Positions 31,824 through 40,026 of a stretch of 64,000 nt of DNA are shown here, one piece after another. The DNA is from Pelagibacteraceae bacterium AG-390-D18 (GTDB taxonomy: Bacteria; Pseudomonadota; Alphaproteobacteria; Pelagibacterales; Pelagibacteraceae): positions 1 through 64,000 of the forward strand of contig QCGY01000007.1 of NCBI GenBank assembly GCA_003279715.1, written 5' to 3'. The first letter of the stretch is position 1; the number at the start of each line of letters is the position of its first letter. The notes under the pieces are model-generated. The model was not told the origin of the DNA. It did not search any database and saw only the letters and a program-made list of their open reading frames with translations. The translations under genes and the position numbers were made by a program.

Positions 31824-32585
31824 TTAATAGAACATTATAAAGGCTAATATTCCAATTATTTCTCTAAAAAAAATATTAAAAGATTGCCAATTTTCAGCAA
31901 TATTTAATCTTTGATAATAATTTAAAATATTAAAATCATTTATAGATCTAAAATCCACAGCATATGGTTTAATATTTAGATCTAATTCTTTCGCAATCAG
32001 CATCGACCTTTTCATATGAAATGCGGATGTAATTAAGATATTAGATTGATTGAGATTATTAATATTTTTAAAAGCTTTTAAGTTTTCTATTGTATTTCTA
32101 GTATTATCAATAAAAATAATTTTTTTTAAATCAAAATTAATGTTTGAATAAAAAATTTTAGCTACATGAACTTCATTAAATTTACTTTTAACAATTCTAC
32201 CATCACCACCTAAATAATATATTTTTGAATTTGGGTATTCTAAAGCTAATTTTACACTAGTAATAAGTCTTTCCGAAGCATCATTAAGAGTTAATTTTTT
32301 AGTAATTTTGGTTGAAAAAATATTTTCTGAACCAGCTAATACAACTATATTATCAATTTTATAAACATTATCTTGTAATATATAATCTTTTTCTAAATAT
32401 TTTAGACCCAAGTTTCCTAAAGGAAAAAAAGAAATTAGAAGTAATAATATTAAAATTATATTTGAAAAAAATTTAAATCTAAATTTTGTTTTTAAGTTTA
32501 TTAAATAAAAAATTATTAATAAAATAAATAATAAATTTGTTAGATTTAATATTGGAGCTAAAAATTTTGATAAGTAAAAATACAA
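31824..32585 (-). CDS. YdcF/ElyC/SanA-family membrane protein
   Basis: 253 aa with two N-terminal transmembrane segments (about 10-30 and 38-60) and a DUF218-type domain. IVVLAGSENIF, the YYLGGDGR motif, RNTIENL and ILITSAFHMKRSM are the family signatures. ElyC in Escherichia coli affects envelope and peptidoglycan precursor (lipid carrier) metabolism. It directly follows glmS (2-nt gap), which supplies the amino sugar for peptidoglycan and LPS, so an envelope role is likely here too. Confidence 0.82.
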   Translation of the reverse strand: MYFYLSKFLAPILNLTNLLFILLIIFYLINLKTKFRFKFFSNIILILLLLISFFPLGNLGLKYLEKDYILQDNVYKIDNIVVLAGSENIFSTKITKKLTLNDASERLITSVKLALEYPNSKIYYLGGDGRIVKSKFNEVHVAKIFYSNINFDLKKIIFIDNTRNTIENLKAFKNINNLNQSNILITSAFHMKRSMLIAKELDLNIKPYAVDFRSINDFNILNYYQRLNIAENWQSFNIFFREIIGILAFIMFY

Positions 32586-32587
32586 AA

Positions 32588-34408
32588 CTATTCTACAGTT
32601 ACTGATTTAGCTAAATTTCTTGGCTTATCTATATCGTAGCCTTTTTTAAGAGCTGAATAATATGCAAGCTTCTGAAGTGGTATTGTTAAAAGAAATGGAA
32701 GTAAGTCATCATTTGTAGTTTCTACCTCAATTTTTTCCCAAATATTTTCAGATACAATTTCATCTTTGTTTTTATTGGTAATTAATAAAACTTTAGCTCC
32801 CCTTGCTACAACTTCCTGCATATTTGAAATAGTTTTTTTATAATAATTGTCTCTTGGAGCTAAAACTACAACAGGCATACCCTCTTCTATTAAAGCTAAT
32901 GGTCCGTGTTTCATTTCACCTGCAGGATAACCTTCGGCATGAACATAAGATAATTCCTTAAGTTTTAATGCACCCTCTAATGCAATTGGATAAGAGAAAC
33001 CTCTTCCCAAAAACATTGAACCTTTAGCTTCATTGAATGTTGATGCGATAGCCTGAACATCGTTGTCAATTAACAATGTTTCTTCAATTAATTTTGGTAA
33101 ATTTTTTAGATCTTTGATTTTTTCTTGGTAAACTTTATTTTCAATTTCTTGCCTTAAAGATGATAATTTTAAAGATAGAATATATAAAATAAGTATTTGA
33201 CCTAAAAAAGCTTTAGTCGAAGCAACTCCTATTTCAGGACCACAATGAATTGGCAAAACAAAATTTGAATCCCTTGCGATTGAACTTTCAATTACATTAA
33301 CAACAGCACAAGTCTTCATTTTATTTTTATTACATAAGTCTAACGCTGCATAAGTATCAGCAGTTTCACCTGATTGAGAAACAAAGATATATAAAGTCTC
33401 TTTTTTGAACCTATTTTTTCGATATCTAAACTCTGATGCGATATCAATATTAACATCTAAAGTTGTTAATTCCTCAAACCAATATTTAGCCATTAAGCAA
33501 GAGTGATAAGCTGTTCCACAACCAATCAACATAATTGATTTAATTTCATCTGTTTTCCAAGGGAAATTATAGATATTGATGTCATTATTCATGCTATCTA
33601 CATATTCTTTAATACCCGTTTTCAAAGTTTGAGGCTGTTCTTCAATTTCTTTAGCCATAAAATGTTTGAAATCACCTTTATCATAATTTTGCTGGTCAGT
33701 AGAAAGCTCTAAAACTTTTTTGTTAATTTTTATACCGTCTTCATTAAAAAAATTAACTTCATCTTTTTTAATAAAACAAAATTCACCATCCTCTAAATAA
33801 GTTATCTTATTAGTCATTGATTTTAGAGCATAAGAATCTGATCCAAGATAATTTTCATTAGGACCATACCCCACTGCTAAAGGAGAGCCACGTCTTGCAC
33901 CTATTATTAAATCGGACATATCTTTAAAAATTATTCCTAGGGCAAAACTACCATGAAGTTGTTTTAAAGTTTTTGTAATAGCTTCTTGTAATTCAAATGT
34001 TTTAAGATTTTCTGTAATAAGATGAACAATCACTTCAGTATCTGTTTGAGATTTAAACTTATGTCCTTTGTTCAATAAATATTTCTTTAATAATGTTGAA
34101 TTTTCAATAATTCCATTATGAACTACTGATACATTCTCTGATGAATGTGGGTGAGCATTTATACTATTTGGCACTCCATGAGTTGCCCATCTGACATGAC
34201 CAATACCAATATTTCCTGAAAGATTTTTTAAATCAAAATTATTCTCTAAATTTTCAACTCTACCTTCAGATTTAACTTCATTAATAAAACCATCAGATAA
34301 AGTTGCAATACCAGCAGAATCGTAACCTCTATATTCTAATTTTTTAAGAGAATTAATAATGCTGCTTGATACTGACTTATTGCTAGATATTCCTATTATT
34401 CCACACAT
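32588..34408 (-). CDS. glmS: glutamine-fructose-6-phosphate aminotransferase
   Basis: 606 aa, makes glucosamine-6-phosphate, the entry to UDP-GlcNAc. The nucleophile Cys2 opens the glutaminase domain (MCGIIGI); GHVRWATHG and the HNGIIEN segment follow. Two SIS isomerase domains cover about 280-600 (VSQSGETADT, STKAFLGQ), ending in the conserved KSVTVE tail. It sits between the GlmU half-protein and the YdcF-like gene, with gaps of 2-3 nt. No glmS-ribozyme-type structure has room upstream. Confidence 0.96.
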   Translation of the reverse strand: MCGIIGISSNKSVSSSIINSLKKLEYRGYDSAGIATLSDGFINEVKSEGRVENLENNFDLKNLSGNIGIGHVRWATHGVPNSINAHPHSSENVSVVHNGIIENSTLLKKYLLNKGHKFKSQTDTEVIVHLITENLKTFELQEAITKTLKQLHGSFALGIIFKDMSDLIIGARRGSPLAVGYGPNENYLGSDSYALKSMTNKITYLEDGEFCFIKKDEVNFFNEDGIKINKKVLELSTDQQNYDKGDFKHFMAKEIEEQPQTLKTGIKEYVDSMNNDINIYNFPWKTDEIKSIMLIGCGTAYHSCLMAKYWFEELTTLDVNIDIASEFRYRKNRFKKETLYIFVSQSGETADTYAALDLCNKNKMKTCAVVNVIESSIARDSNFVLPIHCGPEIGVASTKAFLGQILILYILSLKLSSLRQEIENKVYQEKIKDLKNLPKLIEETLLIDNDVQAIASTFNEAKGSMFLGRGFSYPIALEGALKLKELSYVHAEGYPAGEMKHGPLALIEEGMPVVVLAPRDNYYKKTISNMQEVVARGAKVLLITNKNKDEIVSENIWEKIEVETTNDDLLPFLLTIPLQKLAYYSALKKGYDIDKPRNLAKSVTVE

Positions 34409-34411
34409 AGA

Positions 34412-35029
34412 TTATTTTCTTTTATAATTCTTTATTTCAGTTTGTAATGTTCTTGTTAATGCTAAAGATTTCTTTTTTACATTTTTAGTAATTACCGAAC
34501 CTGCTCCAATAATACTTTCTCGATCTATAGTTAGTGGAGCAACTAATGATGAATTAGATCCTATAAAAACGTTATCACTAATTTTTGTTTTACTTTTTTT
34601 TACACCATCATAATTACAAGTAATAGTTCCAGCACCTATGTTAACAGATTTTCCAATTTCACTATCCCCAATATAAGATAAATGATTTACTTTTGTTCTT
34701 TTACCAACAGTACTTTTTTTAACTTCAACAAAATTTCCAATTTTAGATCCTTCTTTTAAAATAGTATTTGGTCTTATTCGTGCGTAAGGTCCAACTTCAA
34801 CTTTATTTTCTATTATACAAGACTCTAAATGTGAAAACGATTTTATTATTACATTATTGCCAATTTTTACATTTTTACCAATAACAACATAAGGTTCAAT
34901 AGTTACATTTTTTCCAATTTTTGTATCATTTGAAAAAAAAATTGTTTCTGGTCCAAACATCTTCACACCGACATTCAAAAATTTATTTCGAAGTTTGTTT
35001 TGAGTTATTTGTGAATTTAATTCTTTCAT
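34412..35029 (-). CDS. glmU: stand-alone GlmU acetyltransferase domain (left-handed beta-helix)
   Basis: 205 aa, matching only the second half of GlmU (about residues 229-445 of the usual 456). Conserved catalytic and binding residues are kept: Arg84/Arg86 in PYARIRP, Lys104-Lys105, catalytic-type His116 in VNHLSYIGD, and NYDG at 139-142. The N-terminal uridyltransferase domain (LAAGxGTRM) is absent and not encoded nearby. It precedes glmS by 3 nt. Glucosamine-1-phosphate acetylation is likely; uridylylation must come from another gene. The half-protein could also acetylate another sugar. Confidence 0.8.
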   Translation of the reverse strand: MKELNSQITQNKLRNKFLNVGVKMFGPETIFFSNDTKIGKNVTIEPYVVIGKNVKIGNNVIIKSFSHLESCIIENKVEVGPYARIRPNTILKEGSKIGNFVEVKKSTVGKRTKVNHLSYIGDSEIGKSVNIGAGTITCNYDGVKKSKTKISDNVFIGSNSSLVAPLTIDRESIIGAGSVITKNVKKKSLALTRTLQTEIKNYKRK

Positions 35030-35098
35030 TTTAAAATGCTTTATATTAAGAATATCTCTTAATTAATTCACATAATATTTCTTTAAAAAACTTTTGAA

Positions 35099-35782
35099 AT
35101 GAAGCAAAAATTCACAATTTTATTTGATTTAGATGGTACGCTAGTAGATACCGCTCCTGATTTAATGTTGGCTCATAACCATGTGATGAAGAAATTTGGT
35201 TATCCCACGAAATCAACAGAAGATATAAGAAATTTAGTAGGTAAAGGTGCTGGTGCTTTAATCGGAAGATCTATATGGGGCCAAGCAAAAAAAGAATTTA
35301 GTAAAGTCTTAGATGCAAAAATAAAAGATGAAATGGTTAAAGAATTTGTAAATTTCTACGGCAAAAATATAGTTAATGAAAGTACTCTAGTAACTGGAGT
35401 TAAAGATTTTTTAATTTGGTGCAAAGAACAAAATATTTCAATGGCAGTTTGTACAAATAAACAAGAACATCTTTCCATTGATCTTTTAAAAAAAATTGGA
35501 ATTTATGATTTTTTTGAATACGTGGCAGGATCAGATACGTTTGACTATTGTAAACCGGATCCAAGACATCTGACAAATGTAGTAGAAATTTTAGATGGAG
35601 ATATAAAAAAAACTATAATGATTGGAGATAGTGAAACTGATGCAAATGCTGCTAAAGCTGCAGAGATACCAGTTATTCTGTTAGAAAATGGGTATACTGA
35701 AAAAAATACAACTGAAATATATCACAATCACCTTATAAAAGATTTCACAGGTGTTGAAAAAATAATTAAAAAATATCTTTGA
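35099..35782 (+). CDS. gph: phosphoglycolate phosphatase-like HAD hydrolase, copy 1
   Basis: 227 aa HAD-superfamily phosphatase. Nucleophile and acid Asp10/Asp12 lie in LFDLDGTLVDTAPD, motif II Thr in AVCTNK, motif III Lys in DYCKPDPRHL, and motif IV in MIGDSETDANAA. A Gph-like role (2-phosphoglycolate or a related small phosphate) fits, though HAD substrates are hard to predict. A second, highly similar copy follows 2 nt later, evidence of recent tandem duplication. Confidence 0.87.
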   Translation: MKQKFTILFDLDGTLVDTAPDLMLAHNHVMKKFGYPTKSTEDIRNLVGKGAGALIGRSIWGQAKKEFSKVLDAKIKDEMVKEFVNFYGKNIVNESTLVTGVKDFLIWCKEQNISMAVCTNKQEHLSIDLLKKIGIYDFFEYVAGSDTFDYCKPDPRHLTNVVEILDGDIKKTIMIGDSETDANAAKAAEIPVILLENGYTEKNTTEIYHNHLIKDFTGVEKIIKKYL

Positions 35783-35784
35783 TA

Positions 35785-36450
35785 ATGGAGCAAAAATTAA
35801 CTGTTTTGTTTGATTTAGATGGAACACTTGTTGACACAGCGCCCGATTTAATTCGCGCACATAATCACGTAATGAAAAAATTTGGCTATCCAACAAAATC
35901 TATAAATGAATTAAAAAATGCTGTTGGCAAAGGTGCTAAAGCTATTATGGCAAAAGGTAATGGTAAATGGGAGTGGTTTGATGAGAAAATTAAGAATGAA
36001 ATGACAGATGAATTTTTATCTTTTTATAAAAAAAATATTTTACATGAGAGCACTCTTCTTAATGGTGTTAAAGAATTTTTAAAATGGTGTAAAAATCAAA
36101 ATATATCAATGGCAGTTTGTACTAATAAAACTGAACATTTGGCAATTGATCTTTTAAAAAAAATTGAAATTTATGACTTTTTTGAATATGTTTCGGGACA
36201 TAATACTTTTGAATACTGTAAACCAGATCCTAGACATTTGCTTAGGACTATAGAAATGTTAAATGGTGATAAAGACAAATCAATAATGATAGGTGATAGC
36301 GAAACAGATGCAAATGCAGCTAAAGAAGCTGAAATTCCAATGATTTTACTTAAATATGGATATACTGAAAAAAGATCAGAAGAAATTTATCATAATCACC
36401 TCATAAAAGACTTCATTGGTATTGAAAAAATAATATCTAAATATCTTTAA
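35785..36450 (+). CDS. phosphoglycolate phosphatase-like HAD hydrolase, copy 2
   Basis: 221 aa near-duplicate of the preceding gene. All four HAD motifs are kept (LFDLDGTLVDTAPD, AVCTNK, EYCKPDPRHL, MIGDSETDANAA), so both copies should be active. Differences are concentrated in about residues 50-75, the cap region that usually sets substrate choice. I chose ATG at 35785, which aligns MEQKLT with MKQKFT of copy 1; an in-frame TTG lies two codons earlier. The two copies are separated by 2 nt. Confidence 0.87.
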   Translation: MEQKLTVLFDLDGTLVDTAPDLIRAHNHVMKKFGYPTKSINELKNAVGKGAKAIMAKGNGKWEWFDEKIKNEMTDEFLSFYKKNILHESTLLNGVKEFLKWCKNQNISMAVCTNKTEHLAIDLLKKIEIYDFFEYVSGHNTFEYCKPDPRHLLRTIEMLNGDKDKSIMIGDSETDANAAKEAEIPMILLKYGYTEKRSEEIYHNHLIKDFIGIEKIISKYL

Positions 36451-36503: not shown

Positions 36504-38006
36504 TTGTTATTACATACAGTTAAAGTTTATCCATCTAAAATCAACCTTCCTAAGAAAAAGCAACTTGCTTGGAAAATAGCTGAGATTGCAAGTGACAATG
36601 CTAAATTAAATAAAGACGCTATTGAAATGGTTATAAATAGAATTATTGACAATGCTTCAGTTGCAATAGCCTCACTAAATAGAAAGCCTGTTATTTCTTC
36701 AAGAGAAATGGCTTTGAAACATTCTAGAAAAAATGGAGCAACTTTATTTGGTGTAAACTCAAAATTTAAATTCGATTGTGAATGGGCGGCTTGGTCAAAT
36801 GGAACTGCTGTTAGAGAGCTCGATTTTCATGATACTTTTTTAGCAGCTGACTACAGTCATCCAGGAGATAATATCCCTCCTCTTTTAGCTGTTGCACAAC
36901 AAAACAAAATAAATGGATTAGATTTATTACGTGGAATTATTACAGCATATGAAGTTCAGGTAAATTTAGTTAAAGGAATTTGTTTACATAAACATAAAGT
37001 TGATCACATAGCTCATTTGGGTCCAAGTGTTGCTGCAGGACTTGGTTCAATGCTTAAACTTAATACCGAAACAATTTACCAAGCAGTTCAACAAGCACTT
37101 CATACAACTGTATCAACAAGACAATCTAGAAAAGGTGAAATTTCAAGCTGGAAAGCTTACGCACCAGCTCATGCAGGTAAGCTTGCAATTGAGGCTGTGG
37201 ATAGAGTTATGCGAGGTGAAGGTGCACCTAGCCCAATTTATGAAGGAGAAGATAGTGTTATAGCTAGAATATTAGATGGTAAAAAAGCTAATTACAAAGT
37301 TCCACTTCCAAAAAAAGGGGAGGCTAAAAAAGCTATTCTTGAAACATACACTAAAGAATATTCTGCAGAATACCAATCACAAGCTTTGATTGATTTAGCT
37401 AAAAAACTTAAAACTAAAATATCCAATTTAAATCAAATTAAAAAAGTTGATATTTTTACAAGTCATCATACTCATTATGTAATTGGAACTGGAGCAAATG
37501 ACCCTCAAAAAATGGATCCAAATGCAAGTAGAGAAACGTTAGATCATTCAATTATGTATATTTTTGCTGTAGCATTAGAAGATGGAGATTGGCATCATGT
37601 GAAATCTTATACAAAAACTAGAGCTAACAGAAAAAGTACTATCAAAATTTGGAAATCAATTACAACCCATGAAGATAAAAAATGGACTAAAAAATATCAC
37701 GACCCAAATCCAATGAAAAAATCTTTTGGTGCTAAGGTAGTTGTAACTTTAAATAATGGTAAGAAAATTAGTGAACAACTTGATAGAGCGGATGCTCATC
37801 CTTATGGATTAAGACCATTTAAAAGACAAAATTATATCAATAAATTTTTAACTTTAACTGATGGCATTCTAAATAAGAAAGAAAGTGATCGTTTTTTAAA
37901 AACAGTTCAAAATTTAAAAAATTTAAAATCAGGTGAATTAAATAAACTGAATATAGAAATTAAAAAAAGTGATTTAAAAAGAAATTTAAAAAAAGGAATA
38001 TTTTAG
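36504..38006 (+). CDS. prpD: 2-methylcitrate dehydratase
   Basis: 500 aa MmgE/PrpD-family enzyme of the methylcitrate cycle that dehydrates 2-methylcitrate on the way to 2-methylisocitrate. Family signatures include [26 protein letters not shown] near 95-125 and the [12 protein letters not shown] and [20 protein letters not shown] blocks. The start is TTG, supported by AAGGAG at the right spacing. It is the first of three genes (prpD, prpB, prpC); its stop overlaps the prpB GTG start by one base. Confidence 0.92.
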
Positions 38007-38902
38007 TGCATTTTGTTGAGAAAGAACCAAGTCAAAAAAGAATAGATTTTGTTGAAAAATTAAGATCTAATAAAATATTAAGGGTACCAGGAGCCTACAA
38101 TCCATTAACTGCAAAACTAATCGAAGAAATTGGATATGATGCTGTTTACATTTCAGGTGGTGTGATGGCTAATGATCTTGGTTTTCCTGATATAGGCTTA
38201 ACAACATTACAAGATGTAAGCACTAGATCATATTTAATATCTAGAGTTACAAATTTACCTACAATTGTAGATATAGATACAGGATTTAAATCTTGCAAAG
38301 AAACTATTGAAACTTTTGAAGAGTTTGGAATTGCAGCAGTTCATTTAGAAGACCAAATCGAAAGAAAGAGATGCGGTCACCTTGATAATAAAGAGTTAAT
38401 TTCAACAGAGGCTATGGTTGATAAAATTAAAGAATGTGTTGCTGCTAAAAAAGACAGTAATTTTAAAATAATTGCAAGATCAGATGCTAAGGGTGTAGAG
38501 GGAATTAATAAAATGATTGATAGATGCAAAGCATACATTGATGCTGGTGCTGAAATTATCTTTCCAGAAGCATTACAAGATGAAAAAGATTTTGAAAAAG
38601 TAAGAAAAGAGCTTTCTTGTTATTTATTAGCCAACATGACTGAATTTGGTAAATCAAAACTTTTCAACTACAAAGAATTAGAGAATTTTGGATATAATAT
38701 AGTAATTTATCCAGTCACTACGCAAAGATTGGCAATGAAAAATGTGGAAGATGGATTAAGAGACATTTATGCGAATGGACATCAGAATAATATTATTGAT
38801 AAAATGCAAACTAGAAAAAGGCTCTATGAGCTAGTTGAGTATGAAAAATACAACTCTCTCGATGAAAAAATTTATAACTTTAGTACGGAAGGACATGAAT
38901 AA
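38006..38902 (+). CDS. prpB: 2-methylisocitrate lyase
   Basis: 298 aa member of the isocitrate lyase/PEP mutase family that splits 2-methylisocitrate to pyruvate and succinate. The catalytic Cys123 lies in ERKRCGH, and the magnesium-binding Asp residues in IVDIDTGF near 88-94. VYISGGVMANDLGFPDIG matches PrpB. It starts with GTG overlapping the prpD stop and ends in a TAATG overlap with prpC, so all three are co-translated. Confidence 0.93.
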   Translation: MHFVEKEPSQKRIDFVEKLRSNKILRVPGAYNPLTAKLIEEIGYDAVYISGGVMANDLGFPDIGLTTLQDVSTRSYLISRVTNLPTIVDIDTGFKSCKETIETFEEFGIAAVHLEDQIERKRCGHLDNKELISTEAMVDKIKECVAAKKDSNFKIIARSDAKGVEGINKMIDRCKAYIDAGAEIIFPEALQDEKDFEKVRKELSCYLLANMTEFGKSKLFNYKELENFGYNIVIYPVTTQRLAMKNVEDGLRDIYANGHQNNIIDKMQTRKRLYELVEYEKYNSLDEKIYNFSTEGHE

Positions 38903-40026
38903 TGAGCGAAGATATTAAAAAAGGGTTACTGGGAATAGTGGTTGATGAAACAGAAGTTTCAAAAGTAATGCCAGAAATAAACTCTCTAACTTATAGAGGA
39001 TATGCTGCTCAAGATTTATGTGAATATTGTAGGTTTGAGGAAGTTGCTTATTTAATTTTAAATAAAGATCTTCCAAACTCAATTCAATTAAAACATTTTG
39101 AAAAAGAAGAAAAAAATAACAGAGAGTTATCAAAAAACTTGTATGAGATAATTAAGCATATGCCAAAAAAATCTCACCCGATGGATGTTGCAAGAACAGC
39201 TGTTAGTGTGATGGGCTTAGAAGATAAAGAGACATCTGACTCTTCATCAGAGGCGAACATGAGAAAAGCTTTGAGAATTTTTGCAAAAACACCTACTGCA
39301 CTAGCTGCTTTTTATAGAATTAGAAGTGGTAAAAAAATTATCAAACCTAAAAAAGAATTAACTTTTGCTGAAAACTTTTTCTACATGTGTTTTGGTAAAG
39401 TTCCTCAAAAAGAAATTGTTAAAGCATTTGATGTATCTTTAATTTTATATGCTGAACATAGTTTCAATGTTTCAACTTTTACAGCAAGAACTATTACTAG
39501 TAGTTTATCTGACATTCATGGAGCTATTACGGGGGCTATAGCAAGTTTAAAAGGTCCACTTCATGGTGGTGCTAACGAAGAAGTAATGCACATGATGAGA
39601 AAAATTAAGAAACCTGAAAATGCATTAAAGTGGATTAATAATGCCCTAAAAAATAAAGAAGTGGTAATGGGGTTTGGTCACAGAGTTTATAAATCTGGAG
39701 ATTCTAGGGTTCCTACCATGCGAGAATATTTTGGAAAAGTTGCTAAAATTAAAAGAGATAAAACTTTTGAAAAGATTTACGACATTGTTGAAAAAGTGAT
39801 GATAAAGAAAAAGAATATTCATCCAAATGTAGATTACCCAACAGGTCCTACTTATCATTTAATGGGATTTGACACCGATTTCTTTACACCAATATTTGTT
39901 ATTTCAAGAATTACCGGTTGGTCCGCGCATATAATGGAGCAACATGCTGCAAATAAACTTATTCGACCACTTGCTAGCTATAAAGGTAGCAAACATCGAA
40001 AAGTAATGCAGTTAAATCAAAGATAA
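38902..40026 (+). CDS. prpC: 2-methylcitrate synthase
   Basis: 374 aa citrate-synthase-family enzyme that condenses propionyl-CoA with oxaloacetate. Catalytic residues sit in the motifs GPLHGGANEEVMHM (His) and GFGHRVYKSGDSR (His), and the Asp in the PTGPTYHLMGFDTDF region. The length and operon position favour PrpC over housekeeping citrate synthase (about 430 aa). It ends 1 nt from the stop of the convergent small lipoprotein gene. Confidence 0.92.
   Translation: MSEDIKKGLLGIVVDETEVSKVMPEINSLTYRGYAAQDLCEYCRFEEVAYLILNKDLPNSIQLKHFEKEEKNNRELSKNLYEIIKHMPKKSHPMDVARTAVSVMGLEDKETSDSSSEANMRKALRIFAKTPTALAAFYRIRSGKKIIKPKKELTFAENFFYMCFGKVPQKEIVKAFDVSLILYAEHSFNVSTFTARTITSSLSDIHGAITGAIASLKGPLHGGANEEVMHMMRKIKKPENALKWINNALKNKEVVMGFGHRVYKSGDSRVPTMREYFGKVAKIKRDKTFEKIYDIVEKVMIKKKNIHPNVDYPTGPTYHLMGFDTDFFTPIFVISRITGWSAHIMEQHAANKLIRPLASYKGSKHRKVMQLNQR

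What the first reader, a model, noticed from the sequence alone, without database searches (positions are those of the whole stretch)
35099..36450. Tandem duplication of a Gph-like phosphatase with a diverged cap
Two almost identical genes lie 2 nt apart. Catalytic motifs are the same, but residues about 50-75 differ strongly, pointing to a change of substrate. Retained duplicates are rare in streamlined genomes.
Basis: partly seen in the sequence, partly recalled or inferred. Interest (0 to 1): 0.5.

Follow-up and report, generated by a model that had tools for sequence, protein, structure and literature searches.

The report
Two old phosphatase alleles in tandem
Two neighbouring phosphatase genes in a SAR11 ocean bacterium are not a recent copy of one another: they are two long-separated versions of the same gene, normally found one or the other at this spot in related species, that ended up side by side.

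Summary
Two HAD-IA genes lie 2 nt apart (35099-35782 and 35785-36450), but they are 70% identical, not "almost identical"; the differences concentrate in residues 46-75. The interpretation does not hold as written. In 17 of 17 other genomes read at this slot, between glmU/glmS and prpD, one HAD gene stands, of cap type A or B. The types are clean clades (138 genes) with 21 columns of disjoint residues, 16 in the cap. Gene 1 is an A, gene 2 a B. Type changes repeatedly on an rpoB tree, and same-clade genomes with like flanks can carry either. True A+B tandems: the window, one further genome of 399 sampled, and a single-cell genome; these three group together on rpoB, so this is no assembly artefact. 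In the other two tandems the spacer looks like gene-end plus promoter flank, as unequal recombination would leave. Both copies are under purifying selection. Function is inferred: a Gph/MupP-type sugar phosphatase beside glmU-glmS, with AnmK and AmgK-/MurU-like genes present; MurNAc-6-P and 2-phosphoglycolate are the leading substrates. Whether A and B differ in substrate is untested.

The parts
35099..35782 (+). gene 1 (type A), 227-aa HAD-IA phosphatase with the long cap (GRSIWGQAKKEF-type)
   Evidence: PF13419 E 7.7e-36; nests in clade A of 138 genes
35234..35311 (+). type A cap stretch, residues 46-71 of gene 1, which holds 16 of the 21 columns with disjoint A/B residues
   Evidence: AlphaFold helix 51-66, pLDDT about 50-60 here
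35783..35784 (+). 2-nt spacer; spacers of 76 and 74 nt stand here in G322 and SAG-MED50
35785..36450 (+). gene 2 (type B), 221-aa HAD-IA phosphatase with the short, Trp-rich cap
   Evidence: PF13419 E 3.9e-38; nests in clade B
35920..35979 (+). type B cap stretch, residues 46-65 of gene 2
   Evidence: AlphaFold short helix 51-56, pLDDT about 58-68
35030..35098 (.). divergent intergenic region between glmU-C (minus) and gene 1; a relative of its part next to the gene precedes the type B genes in G322 and SAG-MED50
34412..35029 (-). glmU acetyltransferase half only (205 aa), divergent neighbour
   Evidence: NCBIfam NF010933 matches model 240-434 of 453
32588..34408 (-). glmS (name from sequence, recalled), next to glmU-C
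   Evidence: sequence; conserved in the locus
36504..38006 (+). prpD-like gene downstream
   Evidence: NF042438 824 bits, below its 950 cut-off
38006..38902 (+). prpB
   Evidence: TIGR02317 376 bits, over cut-off
38902..40026 (+). prpC / citrate synthase II
   Evidence: NF010636 598 bits, over cut-off

Best explanation
The locus is an old alphaproteobacterial gph/mupP-type phosphatase gene beside glmU-glmS. In this SAR11 genus it occurs as two ancient alternative cap types, A (probably ancestral) and B (probably derived), which replace one another between species by homologous recombination. In the ancestor of the window genome, G322 and SAG-MED50 a B gene with its own promoter region was joined behind the resident A gene by unequal recombination, and both were kept. 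In the window genome the spacer then shrank to 2 nt, so gene 2 is now probably co-transcribed and perhaps translationally coupled. Shown: the two types, single occupancy in the genomes read, their discord with rpoB, the shared tandem, purifying selection on both. Inferred: direction of transfer, the recombination event, co-transcription. Function, inferred: small-molecule phosphatase whose main substrate is most likely MurNAc-6-phosphate in the AnmK-MupP-AmgK-MurU recycling route and/or 2-phosphoglycolate; the cap types tune the same reaction or its side range.
For: Tree of 138 genes: A (48), Ap (5), B (85) each one side of a supported branch; gene 1 in A, gene 2 in B; the three tandem B genes form a 100/99 clade. 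21 disjoint columns, 16 in A46-71, 6 of these being one deletion in B (P 5e-14, or 7e-9 without the 6). One gene, A (11) or B (6), between glmU and prpD in 17 of 17 other genomes read. Same-clade pair G342 (A)/G022 (B): flanks 83-97% DNA identity per 100 nt, gene down to 60%. rpoB tree of 24 genomes: label A needs 6 changes and B 5, at least 4 each forced by starred branches; tandem genomes together at 87/97. c2 dS between tandem genomes 0.30-0.45, like rpoB 0.31-0.43; dN/dS about 0.11-0.19 for c2 and 0.04-0.10 for c1. Spacer of SAG-MED50: first 22 nt match its downstream flank (Z 5.5, 0 of 500 shuffles), the rest the upstream flanks of five of six genomes at Z 3.0-5.5 and of G012 at 2.5. 20 of 20 further genus members read have an A-like cap, and sister genus G530 an A-length cap. 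Function: full-length glmU beside the HAD in 11 of 11 sister-family loci, glmU within 1.5 kb in 22 of 29 wider loci; AnmK in 10 of 10 genomes; the three other HAD_2 proteins in each of the near-complete single-contig genomes G012 and G432 pass cut-offs of other families.
Against: The outgroup branch is too long (4.2 changes per site) to root A against B reliably. The G322 spacer gives the weaker signal: 3' part against its own upstream flank Z 1.4 (51 of 500 shuffles), against the other five genomes Z 2.6-4.0; 5' part Z 3.1 against its own downstream flank but 1.3-1.4 against G432 and G012; the split at 22 nt was set by eye. c1 dS between the tandem genomes (0.67-1.16) exceeds rpoB dS, so copy 1 may have its own recombination history; glmS (0.44-0.73) and prpD (0.49-0.60) also run above rpoB, and glmU (0.12-0.35) below, so the whole locus is a mosaic. 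Tandem clade support is 87, not starred, and G159 (A only) is its sister. rpoB lies about 29 kb away on this contig, so it is not fully unlinked. Neither Gph nor MupP curated cut-offs are reached.
Confidence: 0.72

Rival explanations
1. Ancestral tandem: the genus ancestor had both A and B side by side, and almost every lineage later lost one or the other at random.
For: A and B are old and both are intact; the rare tandems could be relics. The spacer structure fits any old tandem.
Against: Needs independent loss in nearly all lineages (true tandem in 2 of 299 genomes with a match); the 20 further members read carry an A-like cap and one match each; the three tandem genomes group together.
Confidence: 0.17
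2. One reading: gene 1 duplicated in this lineage and gene 2's cap then diverged quickly under selection for a new substrate.
For: The pair is tandem, and cap dN between c1 and c2 (0.49) is about three times that of the C-terminal rest (0.17).
Against: Gene 2 groups with 84 other B genes from other genomes, not with gene 1; dS is about 1.3.
Confidence: 0.04
3. Assembly artefact: two strain variants of one locus joined in a mixed bin.
For: The window genome is an incomplete draft (82% complete), and A and B are alternatives elsewhere.
Against: The same order occurs in G322 and in a single-cell assembly, with different spacers; estimated contamination is 0.19%.
Confidence: 0.03
4. Functional rival: the enzyme is a plain 2-phosphoglycolate phosphatase (DNA-repair housekeeping) and has nothing to do with cell-wall recycling.
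For: Best NCBIfam models are Gph (175 and 161 bits) and the MupP model scores far lower (70 and 82 bits); 5 of 9 glmU-side relatives scanned pass TIGR01449; best PDB folds are Gph-annotated, 2HSZ Z 30.6 and 29.2.
Against: Both SAR11 proteins miss the Gph cut-offs. AnmK is present in 10 of 10 genomes and AmgK-/MurU-like genes in the window genome (below cut-offs), and no other Gph/MupP-like HAD_2 protein was found in G012 and G432. An Agrobacterium fosfomycin Tn-Seq paper names a MupP, Atu1614 (PMC9790009, passage); its neighbours were not checked.
Confidence: 0.45

Closest known systems
Bacterial phosphoglycolate phosphatase Gph (TIGR01449, NF009695; PDB 2HSZ, 2NYV/2YY6)
   Same: HAD-IA fold with helical cap, same conserved residues, best sequence and fold matches; 5 of 9 glmU-side relatives scanned in other Alphaproteobacteria pass TIGR01449
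   Different: Both SAR11 proteins score under the curated cut-offs (140 and 130.5 against 180); two cap types at one locus
MupP, MurNAc-6-phosphate phosphatase (PMC5371407: sections 7 and 11 and passages read)
   Same: HAD_2 protein, Gph-like; works with AnmK, AmgK and MurU, relatives of which are present here. In Caulobacter the MupP candidate CCNA_02390 has the locus number next to GlmU CCNA_02389 (PMC13046382, table passage)
   Different: Scores 70 and 82.4 bits against a 359-bit cut-off for NF009696; no activity data in SAR11 seen
Divergent tandem duplicated genes and gene-indel polymorphism in SAR11 hypervariable regions (PMC2217521, passages read)
   Same: Divergent tandem copies gained and lost between close SAR11 strains; indels proposed as allele-like polymorphisms
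   Different: Those are ammonium transporters and Type V secretion genes in HVR1; here it is a syntenic locus with two alternative cap types

Membership tests
HAD-IA / HAD_2 (PF13419) | Profile match over the gathering score | tested here: met
   124.3 and 131.8 bits against 23.8
HAD-IA / HAD_2 (PF13419) | Catalytic Asp pair, conserved Lys, acidic last motif (motif names recalled) | tested here: met
   Invariant D10, D12, K152, D177, D181 in 40 sequences
HAD-IA / HAD_2 (PF13419) | Helical C1-type cap between strand 1 and the core | tested here: met
   Helices 19-89 (A) and 19-83 (B) in the models; pLDDT low in the variable stretch
Gph equivalog | TIGR01449 or NF009695 curated cut-off | tested here: not met
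   140 and 130.5 against 180; 175.1 and 161.1 against 225
Gph equivalog | Activity on 2-phosphoglycolate | not testable with these tools
   needs enzyme assay
Alphaproteobacterial glmU-side gph/mupP gene (orthology by place) | Adjacent to glmU | tested here: met
   window; 11 of 11 sister-family loci; 22 of 29 wider loci
MupP | NF009696 curated cut-off | tested here: not met
   70 and 82.4 against 359 bits
MupP | AnmK present to supply MurNAc-6-P | tested here: met
   PF03702 over cut-off in 10 of 10 genomes, window genome included
MupP | AmgK and MurU present to use MurNAc | tested here: inconclusive
   Neighbouring genes in L304 have AmgK and MurU as best models but 120.5 against 550 and 106.8 against 250 bits
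MupP | Activity on MurNAc-6-P | not testable with these tools
   needs enzyme assay

The most novel reading that the evidence does not exclude
SAR11 keeps a two-module, trans-species polymorphism in the cap of a cell-wall-recycling (MupP-type) phosphatase: two discrete caps, each strongly conserved within its type, are swapped between species by recombination and held by balancing or niche-dependent selection, and one small clade has fixed both in tandem, a haploid analogue of a permanent heterozygote, because the two caps serve different phosphosugars.
Probability: 0.15. Interest if true: 0.6.

Novelty: new variant of a known kind. Interest (0 to 1): 0.38.

Why it matters
It turns an apparent young duplication into an old allelic dimorphism at a conserved locus. 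That gives a clean natural experiment: like genome background, same neighbours, two caps, and a clade that has both. It would test whether recombination in SAR11 shuffles functional enzyme variants, and it points to a candidate for the MurNAc-6-P phosphatase step of cell-wall recycling in very abundant ocean bacteria. The listings of searches (open-licence library only) showed no paper whose title or abstract start is about this locus; the papers listed were mostly not opened.

Tried and rejected
Local duplication: rejected on the gene tree. Assembly artefact: rejected. Link to the methylcitrate genes: nine genomes without the HAD also had no prpD match (no positive control in that call), which first looked like co-occurrence. 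Of the seven of these that one search covered, five have no strong glmS match either (G004, G031, G046, G062 none; G003 only a 9e-22 match), and in the other two glmS is whole at the very start of a contig (G063) or partial (G013); and the sister family has the HAD without a prpD match. A missing block or contig end explains it better. Phage carriage: 39 of 50,697 phage records match, all under 60% identity; no relative in viral contigs. Promoter scan: counts no higher than in shuffles. A conserved Arg in the A cap (R57, Lys in B) was considered as a functional difference and dropped, because the wider relatives read do not keep it. Rooting A/B with the sister family: branch too long. Cap position relative to the active site was not measured, since no model coordinates were at hand and the stretch has low pLDDT.

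Rows dropped: 165 of 169 loci (L001-L169) gave a gene; genes whose best match did not begin at residue 1, or with an inner stop, were left out by the script; one 124-aa fragment (L144, G156) of the 139 distinct genes was left out of the tree. For rpoB, 3 of 30 genomes had no match and 3 of 27 matches were too short for the tree (G057, G183, G342). Loci were only the best 80 of 429. The match lists were typed for cap only where loci were read, so no genus-wide A:B ratio is claimed. One search scanned 9 of the 22 glmU-side loci. In a shuffle test the A and B labels on the rpoB tree are hardly more clustered than chance (51 and 88 of 500 shuffles as low). Papers: listings only for searches; passages of PMC13046382, PMC9790009, PMC11980594, PMC2217521; sections 7 and 11 and passages of PMC5371407.

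Full report
WHAT IS THERE. Two open frames on the plus strand, 35099-35782 (227 aa, c1) and 35785-36450 (221 aa, c2), are 2 nt apart. They are HAD_2 proteins, 160/227 identical (70%). Minus-strand glmU (acetyltransferase half only) and glmS lie on one side, prpD-prpB-prpC on the other.

HOW RELATIVES LOOK. Of 121 genomes searched with c2, 93 match (one of these, G017, only by a 38-residue piece); besides the window genome only G093 has a second match, and that is 25% identical. Of 399 genus genomes searched with c1, 299 match, and five have two matches: the window; G322 (a true tandem); G339 (two places with identical scores 8.6 kb apart, probably a duplicated assembly piece); G156 (one gene in two pieces); G298 (second match 38% and elsewhere). 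SAG-MED50, a single-cell assembly found separately, is a third tandem. In the other 17 genomes whose neighbourhood was read at this locus, the same slot between glmU and prpD holds one gene: 227-229 aa in eleven and 221 aa in six.

TWO CAP TYPES. 138 distinct genes split into A (48), Ap (5) and B (85), each one side of a supported branch. 21 columns have no residue in common between A and B, 16 of them in A46-71; six of the 16 are one deletion in B. Mean identity in columns 46-85 is 0.80 within A, 0.95 within B and 0.45 between; elsewhere between-type identity is 0.78-0.80. Ap has an A-like cap in a more B-like body. Twenty further genus members all have an A-like cap, and the sister genus G530 an A-length cap, so B is probably derived; the distant outgroup could not root this.

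ALLELES THAT MOVE. On an rpoB tree of 24 genomes the label A needs six changes and B five; starred branches force at least four for each. G342 (A) and G022 (B) have flanks 83-97% identical per 100 nt, while the gene drops to 60% in the cap; G342 against G260 (both A) stays at 82-97% in the gene. This is what replacement of the gene by recombination leaves.

THE TANDEM. The three tandem genomes group together (87/97), with A-only G159 as sister and A-only G225 next. Gene 2 has dS 0.30-0.45 among them, like rpoB (0.31-0.43), so it was probably inherited from their ancestor. Gene 1 has dS 0.67-1.16, more than rpoB, which suggests later replacement by other A alleles; glmS (0.44-0.73) and prpD (0.49-0.60) are also above rpoB and glmU (0.12-0.35) below, so the region is a recombination mosaic. 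Both copies are under purifying selection (dN/dS 0.04-0.10 and 0.11-0.19). The 74-nt spacer of SAG-MED50 reads as about 20 nt of the usual downstream flank followed by the usual upstream flank (Z 5.5, and 3.0-5.5 for five of six genomes compared, 2.5 for the sixth); the 76-nt spacer of G322 shows the same less strongly. So B probably came in with its own promoter region behind A. In the window genome the spacer is down to 2 nt; co-transcription and coupling are inferred, not shown.

WHAT IT DOES. Models of both (mean pLDDT 85.7 and 87.6) match Gph structures best, 2HSZ Z 30.6 (rmsd 2.2, 223 aligned) and 29.2 (2.3, 216), but the variable cap stretch has pLDDT about 50-68. Neither protein reaches Gph or MupP curated cut-offs. 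The place is old: in 11 of 11 sister-family loci the HAD stands beside full-length glmU, followed by glmS, and in 22 of 29 wider alphaproteobacterial loci glmU is within 1.5 kb; 5 of 9 such relatives scanned pass the Gph model TIGR01449. A prpD match was found only in the window's genus among the five genera, so the HAD does not depend on the prp genes. In Caulobacter a Gph-annotated gene with the locus number next to GlmU is listed as the MupP candidate (PMC13046382, table passage; PMC11980594 also lists a MupP homologue), and an Agrobacterium fosfomycin screen names a MupP (PMC9790009, passage). The window genome has AnmK and an AmgK-like/MurU-like pair. Its only other HAD_2 match is a pyrimidine 5'-nucleotidase, though the draft is 82% complete; in the single-contig genomes G012 and G432 the three other HAD_2 proteins each pass cut-offs for haloacid dehalogenase type II, pyrimidine 5'-nucleotidase or phosphonatase. 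I therefore put MurNAc-6-P and 2-phosphoglycolate nearly level as main substrate; one enzyme may serve both.

VERDICT. The interesting part is the two-cap dimorphism across species; the tandem is its rare double carrier. Substrate difference remains open.

Noticed in passing
window 34412-35029: GlmU is reduced to its acetyltransferase half (about 205 aa) here and in the genus loci read, while the sister family and sister genus G530 (L258) have full-length GlmU at the same place. The missing uridyltransferase may be supplied by the MurU-like 229-aa gene seen in L304.
   Followed up: partly
window 31824-32585: The slot after glmS is variable: a 253-aa protein here, a 120-aa protein in G225, nothing in G159, two other genes (331 and 205 aa) in G432.
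   Followed up: no
L153:9953-10585, L154:151-804, L156:9096-9734: A roughly 210-aa gene follows prpC in several relatives but is absent in the window.
   Followed up: no
L207:685-2049: In G060 a phosphoglucomutase-like HAD domain (residues 2-182) and a nucleotidyltransferase-like domain (221-449) share one frame.
   Followed up: partly
L144, L147 (G156): A HAD gene of this kind lies in two overlapping matches with an in-frame stop: pseudogene or sequencing error.
   Followed up: no
L143, L145 (G339): Two copies of the HAD with identical scores 8.6 kb apart on one contig, probably an assembly duplication.
   Followed up: no
G004 (96% complete), G062 (91% complete): Neither genome gave a match to the HAD, prpD or glmS queries, although both are rated nearly complete.
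   Followed up: partly
G029:C22:9999-11501, G047:C17:4834-6339: A more distant (53-54% identical) PrpD-like gene: a second one in G029, the only one found in G047.
   Followed up: no
L286:1459-3617: In one alphaproteobacterium the Gph-like HAD sits just before a pyrimidine 5'-nucleotidase and a dapD gene, the surroundings that the other HAD has in SAR11 (L003).
   Followed up: partly
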